Source: Siphonodentalium dalli (taxonomy: Eukaryota; Mollusca; Scaphopoda; Gadilida; Siphonodentaliidae). Taken from it: DNA of 64,000 nucleotides. This document shows positions 1,171-36,069 of this stretch, piece by piece (positions within the stretch are counted from its first letter, which is position 1; every line of letters starts with the position of its first letter). The stretch is from contig CP136061.1 of assembly GCA_032622095.1 (NCBI GenBank), forward strand, positions 66,963,127 through 67,027,126, in the 5' to 3' direction. The notes under the pieces are model-generated. The model saw only the letters and a list, made by a program, of their open reading frames with translations. It ran no database searches and was not told the origin of the DNA. A program made the translations under genes and the position numbers.

Positions 1171-1660
1171 TCTATCTCATATATATTTTGAAGACCTCTG
1201 TCTGTCTGTCTGTCTGTTTGTCTGTTTGTCTGTCATTAATACAAATCTACGATTCTCGACCGATCGGGACGAAACTTGGTACGTGTGTGTAGTTTGACCA
1301 GGCGGTGGACGTTGTCGTATTGGTGAGCCCGTGCGACGCCCGTGCAGCGCATGCGCAGACGAGGTCTCGGAAACGGGTGGAGCTATCGACTTGAAATTTG
1401 GTATGTGAATGTATCTTGCCCCAAATACGAATTTTATCGGGTCGCCGAGCCCGTGCGACGCCAGCTTCGCGCATGCGCAGACGAGATCTCGGAAACGGGT
1501 GGAGCTATCGACTTGAAATTCGGTATGTGAATGTATCTTGCCCCGGATACGAATTTTATCGGGTCGCCGAGCCCGTGCGACGCCAGCTTCGCGAATACAC
1601 AGACCAGATCTCGGAAACGGGTGGAGCTATCTGCGATATAGGCTCCGACATACACCCACT
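1171..1660 (+). repeat. (GTCT)n run and 122-bp tandem repeat, three copies
   Basis: A GTCT/GTTT run (about 1198-1232) is followed by CGACCGATCGGGACGAAACT and then three tandem units with a spacing of 122 bp. The marker CTCGGAAACGGGTGG occurs at about 1366, 1488 and 1610. The open frames on both strands here come from the tandem copies. The array ends about 100 bp upstream of the first receptor exon, so it lies in the intron before it. Confidence 0.75.
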
Positions 1661-1755
1661 ACCAGAACCTTTCAAGACATGTATCCTCCTCCCCTGACTT
1701 AAACCTTGAATTTACTCAGATGCTTCCATATTTGTTTTCTTTATTCTGTTTACAG

Positions 1756-1865
1756 TGGTGGAGTGACAGTCGGCTGGCATGGTATCCAGAAGACTACGAT
1801 GACATAGATGAAGTATTCTTGGACGATAGCACAATATGGCGACCAACCGTGTCTAATGTGAACGA
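1756..1865 (+). CDS. Nicotinic acetylcholine receptor-like subunit, extracellular-domain exon (partial gene)
   Basis: The exon encodes about 36 residues beginning WWSDSRLAWYPEDY and ending TIWRPTVSNVNE. This is the conserved stretch of the ligand-binding domain around loops D and A in Cys-loop receptors (W-x-D-x-RL-x-W-x-P ... iW-rP). It starts after the acceptor TTTACAG and ends at the donor GA|GTATGT. It leaves two bases of a codon that are completed by the first base of the next exon (GA+G, Glu). Signal peptide and N-terminal exons are not in the window, since everything upstream is repeats, so the gene is cut by the window edge. The family assignment is firm; the exact subunit type is not. 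Confidence 0.85.
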
Positions 1866-3025
1866 GTATGTTATACAAGTGTTGTAGTCCGCTTCGGTTG
1901 TTTCCACACATGCAGGGATGTGGCGACAATGAGACCCGACACCGCCACATGTAGTCAACAAGCTCAACCATGTTGAATAAATGTAAAGGCCACGAACGAA
2001 AGGGATATATATGAGGAAATATTTATGAACTGCCAACTAATCTTTGCGCTATCAAATATCAAAAGTGCTTTTAAAGATTTGTTAGTAACTGTTTCTATCG
2101 ACTGTGGCCTTCTAAAAGTTCATACCTGCCATTTTGGCGCGAAACTTTTTATTGCATTTTCGGAATCTATGGGTTCGATTTCCTCAGATAATTTGCCAAT
2201 AGTTCAGGTATAAATGCCATTTTTCGATGTTTATCAGGGAAATTCGTGTCCTAAAATGTCGTATCTGGGTTCACCGCGAATATTTTTTTCTTTAATTCTG
2301 AATTGTCGTATTTTTTATTTTCGAAACCTTTCCTGATAGGATAATATTCTGATTATAATGTTTTGAAGAATGGTCGGAGGGCGTATCCTCCTTATCCTGA
2401 TTGACAGAGACTAACAAAGCCGCGGGAATGGTCAAAACTAAAATGTCATGTAGACAAGATTTCGATTTTTTACTTCTAAAATGTCGCATAACACAAACAA
2501 ATCATGTTTTCTCATCAACTAGAAGATACTTGAATATGAAAGTGTATCTATTATAACAACTGTGATATACAGTATTGTGAAAAGCTATTTGCAGATACCA
2601 ATTCTAGTTCCAGAGATAAATAGCTGTTTGTGTCTCCTGAACAATTTGATTTTTCTGAAGTACTATCTTTTAGAAGCCCACCGACGATATGTGTAAATAA
2701 AGTATCAGCCGATATATGTCGGCAATTAGCAGTTGATTAGTATGTATAGTGTTTTATCGATTTATTGATTTGAAAAAATACAGTCTTGAGAGTCAATATT
2801 TGGAGTATAAAAATTAATCAAATACTATGGATATAAACGAACTGATGGGCGTTGATGATATTATTTTAAAGAAACAATGTTCGTCCATCAACCCGTGTCG
2901 ATATCGGTACCATTGATCGGATAAATTAACTAAATTTGGTACTTTTCCCAGAGATGGGAATATTATGCGGATTCATAATTATGGAATGTAGTTCGGGTGT
3001 TTGTTTAATCAAAAATGTTTTACAG
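1866..3025 (+). other. Receptor intron 1
   Basis: The intron begins GTATGT and ends TTTTACAG, about 1.16 kb long. No transposon, RNA gene or conserved motif was recognised inside it. Short open frames here have no family resemblance. Confidence 0.75.
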
Positions 3026-3558
3026 GGTACATCTTCTGAATATCCTACACAATCAATACGTGCCGATATTATGTGATTCTGATGGCTACTGTTTATGGGA
3101 TCCACCGCAGGTCACTAATACAGCGTGCGACCTTGATGTGACCTTTTACCCTTGCGATCAACAGACATGTTCAATTGACCTCATGGTATGGCAATACAGT
3201 ATTCACGAAGTGGACTTATTTCCAAGTGATGATGGGATTCACCTCACCTACTTCTCAGAAAATGTCGAGTGGCAAATCTTAAGCCACAAATTGATACAAG
3301 AAAAAGCAGAAAAGAAAGGAAAAGAATATTCCCAAGTCAAAGCTATATTCACAATACAAAGGAGACCCATCTATCATATTTTCAGCGTTGTCATCCCGAC
3401 CGTTGTCATGGCGTTCATGAGTCCATTTGTGTTTCTTCTGCCAGCTGATTCCGGTGAGAAAATTGGATACATCATCACAATGTTTCTTGCATACGCTGTT
3501 CTGCTAACTTTAGTGCAAGATCAACTACCCTCTGCGGCAAAAAGTCCGTCGATTATAA
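3026..3558 (+). CDS. Nicotinic acetylcholine receptor-like subunit, Cys-loop to M2 exon
   Basis: This 533-bp exon encodes about 178 residues. In order it shows the rest of the ligand-binding domain; the Cys-loop CDLDVTFYPCDQQTC with the expected 13 residues between cysteines; M1 (HIFSVVIPTVVMAFMSPFVF); and M2 within GEKIGYIITMFLAYAVLLTL. In M2 the glutamate before the helix, Thr at 6', the gate Leu at 9' and an acidic residue at 20' are present, as in cation-selective nicotinic channels. The loop C region (about SENVEWQILSHKL) has no adjacent cysteine pair, so it looks like a non-alpha subunit. The usual FPFD in the Cys-loop reads FYPCD, giving an extra cysteine. It is bounded by TTTTACAG and by A|GTAAGT. 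Confidence 0.92.
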
Positions 3559-4394
3559 GTAAGTTCATTCTTGATAAAGCTATAATATGCAAGGGTCAGA
3601 TATATTAGTGTAGACACAATGTATCCACAAATTATTTTGTCGCTACAACAATGCATGGCCATGCAACCTCAAGTTCAGTGATTTTTCGCTGGATCCTTCA
3701 ATTTATTCACATCAATTAGATGTATTCAGTGACGGTAGCAACTTCTGTGTTGTTCCTGAACCTGGTTCTCCGTCATGGTCCATGGTAAACAACAACGGAC
3801 AGAGAGCAGTAGCTTGTAATATGGCAATTAAACCTCTCCAAGACGGCAAGCGAAATTATTAGCTTTTCTGCAGAATGTCACCTAAATTCTAAAATGCTTG
3901 TGAGAACAGACAATTTTCTCGGAAGAAAATCCGAGACAGATTTAGTCCCTAATCAAACCCCCCATAATTTCTCGGAATGTAAATGAGCTATAAGAGCTCA
4001 TGTGATAGATCATTCACATGACGTTAAATTAATCCGGCCTTTTATGGGACTATCTCCAATTATAGTCAACAGAATATATGCAACAAATGAATGAATTTGA
4101 GCCATGAATTAGTGCAAAATACACTCGTGTGCTCTGTGAATGATACAATTACAAACAACATGGTAATTAATGAAAATGAGTTTATGATTTGTTGCATATA
4201 TTCTGTTGAGTATAAAAGGAGACGGTCACATAAATGGCCAGATGTTGTGTACAGTCCCTCTTTAACTAGTTTCGCGTTCTTGCTTTGAATATTACTATTT
4301 AATGCAAGATGCAACTTCATTTATGGAAGATACAATGATTGTTTTTCAATTCACAATGACGTTGAATGTTGAAATAAACAATATCCTGAAACGG

Positions 4395-15009: not shown

Positions 15010-16560
15010 TCAGAGATGAAGCAAGTTTTTTTTAGCTGAGTCAGTGTTTATGTATTTCCTCATTTGACCCAGTTTTCGAAGTTCAATGTATATTGTCTTG
15101 CATATCTGGCTAATATGTGATGTCATAGAGAGTGACCTATCCAAAAATACACCAAGGTTCTTCGCGCTATCTGAGAAATAAACTTGGTTACCATCAATAA
15201 TCATAACATCTATGCCCACCTTTTCTATGTATGACGGCTTAGACACCCACATTACTTCAGTTTTGTCACTATTTAATTTTAGTTTATTAGCCAACATCCA
15301 CGATTTCACAGAACCGATGCAGTTTTCCATTACAGTGAGAAGAAAATAGGGGTTATCACCAGAAATGTAAAGCTGTGTATCATCAGCATACATGTGCGCA
15401 GAGACACTGTGTCGCCTGATGATCTCACCAAGTGGTTTGGTGTAGATTAAGTACAAGACAGGCCCCAGGACATATCCCTGAGGGACTCCATATTGCAGAT
15501 GAAAGGTTTTGGAAAACGCACTGCCAATTTGAATCCTCTGAACACGATTAGAGAGATATGAACCGAACCACTTGAGTGCGCTGTCAGATATCCCAAAAGA
15601 AATTTCCAATCGCTTCAACAGTATTTCGTGATCAAGAGTATCGAAAGCTGCGCTCATGTCAAGCAGGGATACTAGTGAAAACTTGTTATCATCACTGGCA
15701 AGAAGAAGGTCTGAAGTGATACACAACAATGCAGTTTCAGTACTGTGCCCATGTTTGTACGCTGACTGAATTTTTTCCAGAAGCAAATGTTTCTCCATAT
15801 GATCTCTCAGTTGTTTGAGGACAGCTTTTTCTAACAGCTTCGAGACGAATTGAAGGTTTGAGATGGGCCTATAGTTCTTTAGCAAGTCGGCATCCAGAGA
15901 ATTATTTTTAATCAGGGGAATCACAACGGCCTCCTTAAAACAGTCAGGAACAACACCTTCAGACAAAGACCAATTTATGAGCTTTGTGATTGGTTCTAAT
16001 ATAAAATCGATATGTTCCACCAGTAAAGAAGTTGGAATGGGATCCAAAACACATGTTTTTGAAGTGAATGATAAAATAAGTTCCTTGACCTCATCACATG
16101 TAAGCTTGCAGAACGAACTAAGACTGTCACCAACGAACGGTTTGAACTCTGCTTCAGTATTTGATACATCTAGCTGGTAACGCAGGTTTGCAATTTTGTC
16201 ACGGAAATATTCACCAAAAGCATCCGGTAATTCACTTTCTTTAACATTAGTAGGAAGAATTGGTATTTTTTTCTTACCACTTAGTTCGTTGGTTATGGAA
16301 TAGATGACTTTTGTTGACTTAGCATTCGCGATTTTAGAGTTATAGTATTCCGAACGGGCAGATCTAGTCATTTGATTCATACGGTTGTTCTTTTCAACAT
16401 AGATTTGACGATCAACTGTTAGACCGGATTTTCGCCATCTCCTCTCAGCATGCCGCTTATCAGCTTTGGCACTCTTTATTTCATCATTGAACCACGGGGT
16501 AGATGGACGACATCGAATTTTGCGTGTGACTAAAGGTGCATTGGTGTTAGTTCTTGTCAT
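15010..16560 (-). pseudogene. LINE reverse transcriptase (truncated, frameshifted)
   Basis: This 516-residue frame holds the RT domain: NYRPISN (229-235), the acidic motif DMSAAFDTLDH (301-311), GVPQGYVLGP (358-367; the usual Ser is Tyr) and the catalytic YADD (391-394). It ends at a run of eight A residues (minus strand). Reading on in the next frame gives KLASSLILSRLDYCNSLL, the expected continuation, so the run has most likely gained two bases. The N-terminal endonuclease is missing. All catalytic aspartates are intact, so decay is modest. Confidence 0.9.
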
Positions 16561-16570
16561 GACATATCAG

Positions 16571-31493: not shown

Positions 31494-31641
31494 GAATTTC
31501 CCCGGTCTCCCGATCGGCCAGTCAGCCTCTGAATTTCCCCGGTCTCCCGATCGGCCAGTCGGCCTCTGAATTTCCCCGGTCTCCCGATCGGCCAGTCAGC
31601 CTCTGAATTTCCCCGGTCTCCCGATCGGACAGTCAGCCTCT
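31494..31641. repeat. 37-bp tandem repeat, four copies
   Basis: The unit GAATTTCCCCGGTCTCCCGA plus TCGGCCAGTCAGCCTCT starts at 31494, 31531, 31568 and 31605, almost without change. Confidence 0.97.
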
Positions 31642-31739
31642 GGCAGTTTGCGCTCCAAAATATACACCTAATTATATTCACTTTTGAATTTAATTTCCCG
31701 GAATCGAAATAGGTCGTTAAATACCAGAAATATACTTAA

Positions 31740-32319: not shown

Positions 32320-32492
32320 TTAAGCATTATATGTCGCAGAAAGGCGGATTGAAGTCATAACAAATACAACTTCGAACATAATTTAATGTACAGCCGGGCC
32401 CCGCACAGAAAACTGTGTCATTTGCATTCATTGCAATTCTGGAATCGGAAACGGAATGTTCGGAATATGCAGAGTAACGCTTGAAAAAATAC

Positions 32493-32554
32493 AGTATTCC
32501 CAATTCTCTCATAATAAAAAACACACTCGTTGCAAACGAGCCGCACCGTTACCG
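32493..32554 (-). repeat. Split direct repeat B2
   Basis: 62 bp identical to 33123-33184, from AGTATTCCCAATTCTC to CCGCACCGTTACCG (+ strand). It forms the presumed 3' end of the element. Confidence 0.9.
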
Positions 32555-32907
32555 GACTGGCGTTTATTGTAAACATGAAAACTGCATACCAGTGGGCACA
32601 TGTCACATTTACATGGAGTACAATTTTACCATCTACCTGGTCTGCGACGACGGTCAGGAAAACCCTCCTTTTATTTAGGAGGAAACCTGTTTTCCGAAAC
32701 CCAATCAAAGCCGCAGCTCAAATGTTCGGAAATTCATCTGTACAAATAATATCCTATGCTATATGAGTATAAATACATATTGTTATGACTTTACATGCAA
32801 AATCAATAGCCGTGCAACTTTCTTATATTGCATGTTATAAGCATAGTCTACTCTTTTACACATATGTCTCTGCATTGAATTTTTAATGAACTATCTTCAA
32901 TGTAATT

Positions 32908-33123
32908 ATAAGTTTGAGATCTAAATCCGGCGAAGGTTAAGACTAGAATGATACTACACTATCACTGTGTTATTGACCACCACTCATAACACAGCTCAGA
33001 ATACACTCACATTGGCCACTGCCTTAACGCTTATCGCTCATGTCTAATTGTTCACTACTAATTATGACCCGCACTGTGAATACAAACTTTTTTCGCTAAT
33101 CAAGCAAACGCGGAAAAGTACTA
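32908..33123 (-). repeat. Split direct repeat A2
   Basis: 216 bp, matching 35046-35268 except for one substitution and a missing 7-bp CTTATCG duplication. It directly abuts B1. Confidence 0.95.
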
Positions 33124-33184
33124 GTATTCCCAATTCTCTCATAATAAAAAACACACTCGTTGCAAACGAGCCGCACCGTTACCG
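33123..33184 (-). repeat. Split direct repeat B1
   Basis: 62 bp identical to B2. The B1/A2 junction is what would form if the element ends were joined in a circle. Confidence 0.9.
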
Positions 33185-33358
33185 AGCTAGAAATTTACAA
33201 AGACGACGGCTATCGAAAATGCATCGATCCATTCCACAGAATGGTTAGATAATATCGTATTCTGATATCAAACAATCATAACTGTAGTAAGTTGTACATC
33301 AATCACAATGTATATAACAATTGTTACAAACAAACATATATATATATATATTACGATC

Positions 33359-34255
33359 CTAAGCCGTGGCCCCTCCGGCCCTGAGACTATGAAGTCCCAG
33401 ATTCAAACCACTGCTGACCAAACGTAGCTTGGTGATCAATCTGTCACGAACTGTAGTATAACTCAGTTTCTTATTGATCGCTCTAAATTTAAAGAATCCT
33501 TTACAATAAAAACCTGATGTAAACAAATAATCATCTTTATCTAATTCATTCGCAAACTTTAAATATTTAATGTACATGTTGTAAGGACATGCCTTGCTGT
33601 TACCTTTAGAAATGAGAATACTGTCACCTTGCCTGTATCTATCTGTTTTGCTACCACGAATATTAAGTTTCAAAAAATCATCATGAATTTCAACATCACT
33701 CTTCTTTAGAGAAGATACTTCATCAAATCTTTAAAATCCACTAAATGAAAATAACAGCATTGCCAAATCACGTGTGTTAAAGAAATCATTTGAATTTTCA
33801 AATTTATCACACAATTGAATAAGCATTTCTACTGTAACCGGATCTTTCCGCTGTACAGGCTTGTAACAATTTCTTTTGGCTGACTGGACTAAATTTGTTA
33901 CATAACCGTTATCAGTTGGATTAGCAAGATTATTTATTTCATGTGCCCACTGAATAGAATACTTAGCAGATACAACAGTATTATATGAAGCACCGTTTTT
34001 TAACAGATGAGTTATGTACAGAGCAATGTGGATAGGCATTGCTGGTAGTGAGTCATAGTTCTTCTCACCGGCAAACTTTTCCCATCGCTTGAATCCAGCG
34101 AAATAAGTCTTTGTCGTAGCGTCACTCTTTGCTCCAATAAGAAAACTTCCCATCGAGCTGATCAAGGAATTTTCCGCATCCGTACAATCACGTGCACTAT
34201 CCGACTCACATTTTATTCGAATACCAGACTCAATGTTCAGACCTGCAAGAAACAT
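33359..34255 (-). pseudogene. Tyrosine recombinase (broken)
   Basis: One frame runs from 34255 to 33359 with a single TAA at 33731-33729. Residues 36-130 form the helical core-binding domain (TKTYFAGFKRWEKFAGEK, MPIHIALYITHL, SAKYSIQWAHEI). The catalytic domain has the first arginine just after the stop (FSGF-stop-RFDEV, where most relatives have Leu), the lysine in SKTDRYRQGD, and the second catalytic box HSLR in LGLHSLRAGG. The frame then ends within four residues of that box, so the tyrosine nucleophile region is missing. A TTTCTTGCAG acceptor-like sequence sits near the start, so an intron may join it to the upstream ORF. Inactive as it stands. Confidence 0.85.
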
Positions 34256-34457
34256 ATAAAATAGTTCAAACTGTACACAGCTATTTATTTATTGAATCTT
34301 ATTCTCAATGCTAACATTTTGAAAGGCAGTTCCCTCTTTCCAAATACACCGTTATTCCCTCTACCTGCCATAACCACGTTTTTACAATAAACATGGTGGT
34401 CCTTCACAAAATATTTGAAATTCCCATCTCTGTTTACTAATAGAGGCCGACTTCCAC

Positions 34458-35024
34458 TCAGGAATAATCTTTTCTGTTGGCTACGTTGATTGCTCTGCTG
34501 ATCTTCTTTTCATCCTCAGAGTCTTCAGCTAGAGGATTAGACATGTATTCATGAACAACAGCCCAACCATTTTCATTAGAATCAGCTATTTTAATACATT
34601 TATTTCTAAAGTTTAAAATATCAATATCGTCTTTTATCTTCTCTCCTGCTTTAGCAACGTCTGTCAAATTTACAACGTCTTTACTGAGTGCCGATTCTGC
34701 GGCTGATATTGAAGATAATACTTTAGAGTTCGTGACATACTGGTCTTCGTTACTTTTTCTTTTGAAAACATATTGACTTTCTTTTAAACTGTCAATTTTA
34801 TTCATTTGCTCTGTTGATATTTCCATCTGAGTGGTACTTATCTTATTTTGTAGAGATGACATCTCTGCGTTCAACAAGCTCTTCATATCGGTCAACAGGG
34901 AATTCTGCGAGCTCTTTACTGCTTCGTTAACTGCCGTCTGTATGTAGCTTTGAATATGACTTGGTTCCATCGCTGAGCTTTGAGTGATTCCTATATCTGG
35001 CGGTACAGACGACTGGCTATCCAT
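34458..35024 (-). CDS. Coiled-coil gag-like ORF of the recombinase element
   Basis: 188 residues starting just inside repeat A1. The N-terminal third is polar, then a long heptad-rich stretch (about 45-90) suggests a coiled coil, then KRKSNEDQYVTNSKVL and a C-terminal NGWAVVHEYMSNPLAEDSED followed by a basic tail. Proteins of this layout accompany recombinase-only ORFs in many invertebrate repeat copies, and a structural (gag-like) or DNA-binding role is inferred. The next frame continues open beyond the stop at 34458, so a frameshift or splice may have trimmed the C-terminus. No zinc knuckle is visible. Confidence 0.65.
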   Translation of the reverse strand: MDSQSSVPPDIGITQSSAMEPSHIQSYIQTAVNEAVKSSQNSLLTDMKSLLNAEMSSLQNKISTTQMEISTEQMNKIDSLKESQYVFKRKSNEDQYVTNSKVLSSISAAESALSKDVVNLTDVAKAGEKIKDDIDILNFRNKCIKIADSNENGWAVVHEYMSNPLAEDSEDEKKISRAINVANRKDYS

Positions 35025-35045
35025 GAGCGTAATATGACGAGCAAA

Positions 35046-35268
35046 ATAAGTTTGAGATCTAAATCCGGCGAAGGTTAAGACTAGATTGATACTACACTAT
35101 CACTGTGTTATTGACCACCACTCATAACACAGCTCAGAATACACTCACATTGGCCACTGCCTTAACGCTTATCGCTTATCGCTCATGTCTAATTGTTCAC
35201 TACTAATTATGACCCGCACTGTGAATACAAACTTTTTTCGCTAATCAAGCAAACGCGGAAAAGTACTA
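35046..35268 (-). repeat. Split direct repeat A1
   Basis: 223 bp partner of 32908-33123; the presumed 5' end of the element on the minus strand. Its outer edge adjoins the LINE fragment. Confidence 0.95.
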
Positions 35269-35269
35269 T

Positions 35270-36069
35270 TACATAGTTATCTGACCAATACTGGAATATG
35301 CATCCCCTGGGTGGGATAACTGCCCTGATTATCTTAGTGTTGACATTGAAAAGGTTAAGTACGAAATGGCCTGAATAGTTATAGGTGCAACCATCAGTAC
35401 GAGTAATGCGCGTCTTTTATCAGAAACTGGCTGGGAACTCCTCTCCTCACGTCGTAGAAAACACAAGCTACGCCAATTTTTTTTTAAATAATACGTAGAA
35501 CTGCTCCATCAATTTTAATTTTAAGAAATTATGTACGACCAATACAGGCAAACAATTCCAGATATAACTTCATATTTGAACACATAAGACTGCCCCCGAA
35601 TATTAACTATGACTATTATATGGATTCTTTCTTGCCAGCTGCACTTACCGAATGGAACAAACTGCCAGAAGCTACAAAGGGCAGCAGTACAATCAAAGAC
35701 TTAAAAAAGGAACTCAACAGTGACAATATACGTCCACCTGTCTATTTTTATCATAGTAAATACCGTAAATCTCATATCCTTCATACCCGGTTAAGACTGA
35801 ACTGCAGCCACATGAGTTGTGACATGACAGATAATCGTGTAAAAAAATCCTCTTTCTGTTTATATGGGGAACTTGAGACATCTTGCTACTATCTCTTTGA
35901 ATGTACATTTTATCAAGAGCCCAGAAGAGAACTGTATGACTCCCTACCCAACGTTGCCATATCTGATAATACTCTATTGCGGGGATCAAGGGAGCTTAGC
36001 CTTCGCGAAAGTAAACAAATATTTAATGCAGTACAGGCATATATCATGAGAACAAAAAGATTCCCATGA
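35270..36069 (+). mobile_element. LINE ORF2 C-terminal fragment, degraded
   Basis: From 35275 the translation reads I-stop-PILEYASPGWDNCPDY, then DIEKVKYEMA-stop-IVIGAT and LLSETGWELLSSRRK. This is the post-RT region of another LINE type, with two CGA-to-TGA stops. The intact frame 35620-36069 (149 residues) begins DSFLPAALTEWNKLPE and includes HTRLRLNCSHM and a degenerate cysteine cluster CLYGELETSCYYLFEC. The RT domain is absent. The similarity begins exactly where the recombinase element ends. Confidence 0.75.
35620..36069 (+). pseudogene. Open part of the LINE C-terminal fragment
   Basis: This 149-residue frame is the best-preserved part of the fragment above. The ATG is accidental, because LINE similarity continues upstream in broken frames. 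It should not be annotated as an independent host gene. Confidence 0.7.

What the first reader, a model, noticed from the sequence alone, without database searches (positions are those of the whole stretch)
32493..35268. Recombinase element with split direct repeats but no reverse transcriptase
The layout A1-gag-like-recombinase-B1A2-B2 is that of Ngaro/PAT-type retroelements, and the B1/A2 junction equals joined ends, which implies a circular intermediate. Yet no RT/RNase H frame is visible. The repeats are almost identical, so this form moved recently. It could be an RT-less lineage or a non-autonomous derivative.
Basis: partly seen in the sequence, partly recalled or inferred. Interest (0 to 1): 0.75.

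Follow-up and report, generated by a model that had tools for sequence, protein, structure and literature searches.

The report
Broken copy of a PAT-like retrotransposon
This is one damaged copy of a known kind of animal jumping gene (a PAT-like tyrosine-recombinase retrotransposon) that lost its reverse transcriptase through an ordinary deletion; close relatives that still have that enzyme sit elsewhere in the same genome, so it is not a new kind of element.

Summary
Window 32494-35268 (coding strand minus) is one 2,775-bp insertion with the layout A1-gag-like-recombinase-B1A2-U-B2. The internal B1/A2 junction equals the joined ends to the base. Paralogous empty sites show a single precise insertion into a dispersed repeat without target duplication. 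Reverse transcriptase is absent because this copy lost 2,555 bp. Six of seven related copies that I compared, 0.65-2.3% diverged over shared parts, match that whole segment; in L013, the one scanned, it encodes a Pfam RT. A second deletion (121 bp) removes the recombinase C-terminus, and an in-frame stop breaks it earlier. Each deletion junction was found once by exact match in the 2.2-Gb genome, so nothing shows that the deleted form multiplied. Of four other gag-recombinase pairs with short spacing, three are different single deletions in other subfamilies; one is unresolved. The relatives combine split direct repeats with a weakly matched Dam-type methyltransferase, which fits PAT-like better than Ngaro. 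Solo A-U-B copies exist too; such solos are already described for Ngaro. Ordinary; low interest.

The parts
32494..35268 (-). whole element, 2,775 bp; the relatives L013, L014, L016 and L017 measure about 5.4-5.5 kb, L015 7.26 kb
   Evidence: ends shared by the 17 copies listed; paralogous empty sites; lengths from the coordinates
35046..35268 (-). A1 repeat (5' end on the coding strand)
34458..35024 (-). gag-like ORF from its first ATG, cut and frameshifted at the deletion junction; stop-to-stop frame 34458-35096. 'Gag-like' rests on its place before RT in the relatives and on recall; no gag family matched (only weak hits below the cut-offs)
   Evidence: 98% identical over residues 1-209 to the start of the 1,125-aa frame of L013
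34468..34469 (-). junction of deletion 1 (2,555 bp relative to L013, positions 1356-3910), one shared G, no GT-AG borders
   Evidence: one exact match in the genome
33359..34288 (-). tyrosine recombinase remnant: in-frame stop at 33731-33733, HxxR motif kept, C-terminus missing
33362..33363 (-). junction of deletion 2 (121 bp relative to L013; removes the recombinase C-terminus)
   Evidence: one exact match in the genome
33124..33184 (-). B1 repeat
32908..33123 (-). A2 repeat, directly joined to B1
32555..32907 (-). spacer U (353 bp) between A2 and B2, kept in full-length and solo copies
32494..32554 (-). B2 repeat (3' end)
32466..32493 (.). left part of the target: a dispersed repeat that continues at 35269
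   Evidence: 38 of 40 listed places span the join, the other 2 being the window's own flanks; 4 aligned
35269..35468. right part of the target, same dispersed repeat (probably a LINE, by recall of motifs in the ORF at 35488-36069; that ORF had no Pfam hit)

Best explanation
The locus is a defective, internally deleted copy of a PAT-like (DIRS-order) tyrosine-recombinase retrotransposon. Inferred working of the full-length relatives: a gag-like part, RT, RNase H and a methyltransferase-like part are made from one ORF and a tyrosine recombinase from the next ORF; RNA is copied into a circle whose joined B/A ends are templated by the internal B1A2 junction; the recombinase inserts the circle precisely, without target duplication. 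The window copy belonged to that family and lost RT, RNase H and the stretch that matches the methyltransferase by one 2,555-bp deletion, and the recombinase C-terminus by another. It has no complete enzyme left and could move at most in trans. Shown: layout, junction identity, precise single insertion, RT-bearing relatives, deletion endpoints. Inferred: the circle, the replication route, and when and how the deletions arose.
For: Of seven further copies of the closest subfamily that were compared, six (L013, L014, L015, L016, L017, L018) match the whole 2,555-bp segment; in L015 and L018 it comes in two main pieces that together cover it with one 69-bp repeat unit less. The segment has RVT_1 (E 2.1e-16) in L013, whose RT part also matches solved retroviral RTs by sequence (best E 1.6e-6). 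L013 has frames of 1,125 and 352 aa. The window differs from the six by 0.65-2.3% substitutions in shared parts. Deletion endpoints are clean. The deletion shifts the gag-like frame and the recombinase tail is gone, so the RT-less state is the derived one. Paralogous empty sites for the window copy and for L014 show one exact insertion each.
Against: No raw reads were available, so a misassembly of this one copy cannot be excluded. In this subfamily RT was confirmed by Pfam in L013 only, in the others by DNA match. Membership in PAT rests on a methyltransferase hit that is below Pfam's cut-off in L013 and L054 and just above it in L055, and the RNase H hits are all below cut-offs; no RT tree with reference elements was made.
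Confidence: 0.95

Rival explanations
1. A non-autonomous form that arrived here already deleted, mobilised in trans by full-length relatives that recognise its intact A/B repeats (for example after a template jump during reverse transcription).
For: A and B repeats and both ends are intact. Three RT-deleted copies in other subfamilies keep an A-type repeat pair at 99% identity (L050, L051, L052), L051 also a second pair; two of them keep an open recombinase frame of 342 and 352 aa (L050, L051).
Against: Each deletion junction of the window was found once by exact match. In-place deletion after insertion explains the same facts.
Confidence: 0.25
2. A true RT-less lineage: a gag-like plus recombinase element that moves as DNA, like a Crypton, or relies on RT from elsewhere.
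For: Of 86 recombinase places that have a gag-like match upstream among the listed best matches, 5 have spacing under 1.4 kb. L053, one of these 5, gave no RT match and no full-length partner in the one comparison made.
Against: 81 of the 86 have spacing of 2.1 kb or more (their RT content was not tested one by one). The window copy and three of the other four short ones are single deletions of full-length relatives, each with its own breakpoints; those relatives have RT. The window recombinase is broken.
Confidence: 0.02
3. The A and B repeats belong to two unrelated insertions.
For: None found.
Against: Paralogous empty sites continue uninterrupted across both outer ends, and the same layout recurs in related copies.
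Confidence: 0.01

Closest known systems
PAT-like (Pat1-like) tyrosine-recombinase retrotransposons; PMC4157794 and PMC3266345 (passages seen)
   Same: split direct repeats, RT/RNase H, Dam-type methyltransferase match, recombinase; PAT-like families are reported there from Lottia, Nematostella and S. kowalevskii, nematodes and green algae, and Pat1-like ones from Mollusca and Cnidaria. The internal repeat pair lies after the recombinase, so it is not the nematode form
   Different: the window copy lacks RT, RNase H and a complete recombinase because of deletions; the gag zinc finger is only weakly matched in the relative; no tree was made
Ngaro elements; PMC8547959 and PMC9210276 (passages seen)
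   Same: A1-ORFs-B1A2-B2 repeat order; isolated AB repeats compared with solo LTRs are described for Ngaro in Cafeteria (PMC8547959)
   Different: Ngaro lacks the methyltransferase domain, which is matched in the relatives here
Cryptons (YR DNA transposons without RT; PMC4157794, passages seen)
   Same: YR without RT, as the window copy looks at first sight
   Different: this family has RT in its full-length members and has split direct repeats

Membership tests
PAT-like retrotransposon | split direct repeats A1..B1A2..B2 | tested here: met
PAT-like retrotransposon | RT and RNase H in full-length members | tested here: met
   RVT_1 2.1e-16 in L013. RNase H only weak and below cut-offs, in L054 (Pfam) and L013 (NCBIfam). 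The window copy has neither
PAT-like retrotransposon | methyltransferase (Dam-type) domain | tested here: met
   PF05869: L055 28.2 bits against a cut-off of 28.1; L013 21.4 and L054 22.8, below it; so met in one relative of another subfamily and weak in two
PAT-like retrotransposon | tyrosine recombinase | tested here: met
   PF00589 27.1 bits at a cut-off of 27.1 and phrog_1 E 8.8e-13 in L013; no integrase hit in the window's two pieces, of which the first is 99% identical to that place of L013
PAT-like retrotransposon | zinc finger in Gag (Pat1-like) | tested here: inconclusive
   zf-CCHC_3 E 6.8e-4, 19.9 bits against a cut-off of 27, in L013
PAT-like retrotransposon | position in an RT or YR tree with reference PAT elements | not tested
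   no reference element sequences fetched
Ngaro | no methyltransferase domain | tested here: not met
   Dam-type matches in three relatives, one of them above the cut-off
Crypton / RT-less YR transposon | no RT in autonomous members | tested here: not met

The most novel reading that the evidence does not exclude
RT-deleted copies that keep their A repeat pair, two of which keep an open recombinase frame (L050, L051; in L051 a second repeat pair is intact too), arise repeatedly and may still excise or be mobilised in trans, or move as recombinase-driven circles without reverse transcription.
Probability: 0.04. Interest if true: 0.45.

Novelty: new member of a known kind. Interest (0 to 1): 0.12.

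Why it matters
It matters little for the question of RT-less elements: the gap is a deletion. The genome does hold a young PAT-like family with full-length, deleted and solo copies and with exact paralogous empty sites, which makes the insertion rule (joined ends TAGTAC...GGGAATAC, no target duplication) readable to the base.

Tried and rejected
Splicing as the origin of the RT-less forms: the deletion borders of the window, L050 and L051 show no GT...AG intron; those of L052 could not be fixed to the base, because its two alignments with L056 overlap, so its deletion is given as about 1.9 kb. Single mobile 'solo' lineage: at 23 informative columns the solo copies carry variants like those of several different longer copies (identical in L021/L020 and L025/L015, one or two columns apart in L024/window, L028/L016, L030/L017), so one solo master is unlikely. 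RT-less lineage: 5 of 86 recombinase places with a gag-like match upstream are closely spaced, and four of these five are separate deletions; the fifth, L053, aligned only partly with the one relative I compared (65% over 629 columns), gave no RT match, and was not resolved. Some of the 86 share one gag-like match, so 86 counts recombinase places, not elements. L020 was left out of the count of copies with the whole segment because 1,021 of the 2,555 bases matched in the stretch fetched. The Pfam hit NQRA_SLBB in L013 (29.0 bits against a cut-off of 27) was set aside as spurious: no single stretch passes, and it falls in the 23-aa tandem repeat. Rfam gave no match in the window. Reads and population data are not on hand.

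Full report
What is there. On the minus strand, window 32494-35268 holds A1 (35268-35046), a gag-like frame, a broken tyrosine recombinase, B1 (33184-33124) joined directly to A2 (33123-32908), a 353-bp spacer U, and B2 (32554-32494). The two B repeats are identical. The two A repeats differ by one base and a 7-bp length difference inside the element (the other mismatch column there is target flank). The coordinates of the finding are right to within a base. The name 'gag-like' rests on position in the relatives and on recall; no gag family matched.

The joined-ends claim. In the 17 copies listed with both ends (the window, L013-L017, L021-L031) the 5' end is constant from TAGTAC and the 3' end is constant up to GGGAATAC, with varying flanks. 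The internal junction, read in 8 copies (the window, L013-L018, L020), is GGGAATAC|TAGTAC in 7; L017 carries a short deletion just before it and keeps AATAC|TAGTAC. Thus the internal junction equals the joined ends exactly.

One insertion, no target duplication. A query made of the window's two flanks joined gave 40 listed matches (40 of 2,314 candidates scored): the window's own two flanks and 38 other places, all of which run across the join. Four were aligned and show no gap or extra base at the join. For L014 the joined flanks ran across the join in 40 of 43 listed matches, the other 3 being short inverted matches (40 of 4,208 candidates scored); four were aligned, again without a gap there. 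These are paralogous copies of the target repeats, not the same locus in another individual. They show that A and B belong to one precise insertion.

Where the RT went. The same genome holds close relatives. Of seven further copies of the closest subfamily that I fetched and compared, six (L013, L014, L015, L016, L017, L018) match the whole 2,555-bp segment that is missing here (in L014 from its third base). In L015 and L018 it comes in two main overlapping pieces with 69 bp less in all, and L015 has additional sequence; the seventh (L020) matched 1,021 of the 2,555 bases. In L013 the segment lies in a frame of 1,125 aa that runs from the gag-like part through RT (RVT_1, E 2.1e-16) to a weak Dam-type methyltransferase match; a recombinase frame of 352 aa follows. 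The RT part of L013 also matches solved retroviral RTs by sequence (best E 1.6e-6). The window copy has no match to the RT or RNase H/methyltransferase pieces of L013. The deletion removes L013 positions 1356-3910, with one shared base at the border, and the gag-like frame runs into a stop just after it. A second deletion of 121 bp removes the tail of the recombinase after the HxxR motif. That this tail holds the catalytic tyrosine is from recall of the family's motifs, not from a call. There is also an in-frame stop at 33731-33733, and 11 bp less than L013 in the stretch between the two deletions. Shared parts differ from L013, L014, L015, L016, L017 and L018 by 0.76, 0.87, 0.65, 1.26, 2.09 and 2.29% substitutions.

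Is there an RT-less lineage? Exact searches for the two deletion junctions found one place each, the window; a copy with a mismatch in those 28 or 24 bases, or in a gap of the assembly, would be missed. Among the best 150 recombinase and 150 gag-like matches, 86 recombinase places have a gag-like match upstream on the same strand within 12 kb; 5 have spacing under 1.4 kb and 81 have 2.1 kb or more. Both lists are capped, some gag-like matches serve two recombinase places, and RT was not tested in each of the 81. Of the four short pairs besides the window, three (L050, L051, L052) are 98-99.7% identical to a full-length relative apart from one deletion each (2,698, 2,609 and about 1,900 bp). 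The relatives (L054, L055, L056) match the RT of L013; L050, L051 and L052 do not, while L051 and L052 still match the RNase H/methyltransferase piece. The fourth (L053) has no RT match either, and I could not resolve it. RT loss therefore looks recurrent and sporadic, not the mark of a lineage. L050 and L051 keep recombinase frames of 342 and 352 aa, so a trans-mobilised or DNA-moving form is not excluded for them, but nothing here supports it.

Solo copies. Of the 19 loci fetched, ten (L021-L030), chosen because their A and B matches lie about 415-445 bp apart, have A-U-B only; L037 is an older one (84-87%) and L031 one with extra sequence inside U. Three of the ten (L021, L022, L027) share the same flanks over 1 kb, so the ten stand for eight sites. 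Their variants resemble those of several longer copies, as expected if recombination between A1 and A2 removed the interior. 'Isolated AB repeats' are already described and compared with solo LTRs for Ngaro elements in Cafeteria (PMC8547959, passages seen).

What it is. Split direct repeats plus a methyltransferase define PAT elements, and Ngaro lacks the methyltransferase (PMC4157794, PMC3266345, PMC9210276, passages seen). Here the repeats are split direct. The methyltransferase match is just above the Pfam cut-off in L055 (28.2 against 28.1) and below it in L013 and L054. The internal repeats lie after the recombinase; in the nematode form they lie between methyltransferase and recombinase. 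I file the family as PAT-like with good but not complete support; an RT tree was not made. PMC6681497 (passages seen) says of the proposed reverse transcription model that A1/A2 and B1/B2 should be nearly identical at insertion, as here.

Verdict. Good eye for structure; the absence of RT is a deletion in one broken copy. Paper searches run. I make no claim that this family is unreported.

Noticed in passing
L013:2921-3310: The full-length relative carries a 69-bp tandem repeat (5.7 copies; a 23-aa unit) inside the frame between RT and RNase H; L015 and L018 have 69 bp less there, which looks like one unit fewer.
   Followed up: partly
L021, L022, L027 (C3, about 257.8-258.3 Mb): Three solo copies share the same flanks, so they look like one insertion that was later duplicated, yet their A repeats differ (226-nt type in L021, 219-nt type with other variants in L022 and L027), as if solo formation or gene conversion happened after duplication.
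   Followed up: partly
window 3009-3608 (+): Exon-like frame of a Cys-loop neurotransmitter-gated ion channel (PF02931 E 8.6e-20, PF02932 E 4.9e-11).
   Followed up: no
window 15010-16566 (-): 518-aa open frame that reads like a LINE reverse transcriptase (by recall of motifs; not searched), a different element from the one studied.
   Followed up: no
window 31494-31642: Four copies of a 37-bp tandem repeat, 97% matches, about 850 bp from the element.
   Followed up: no
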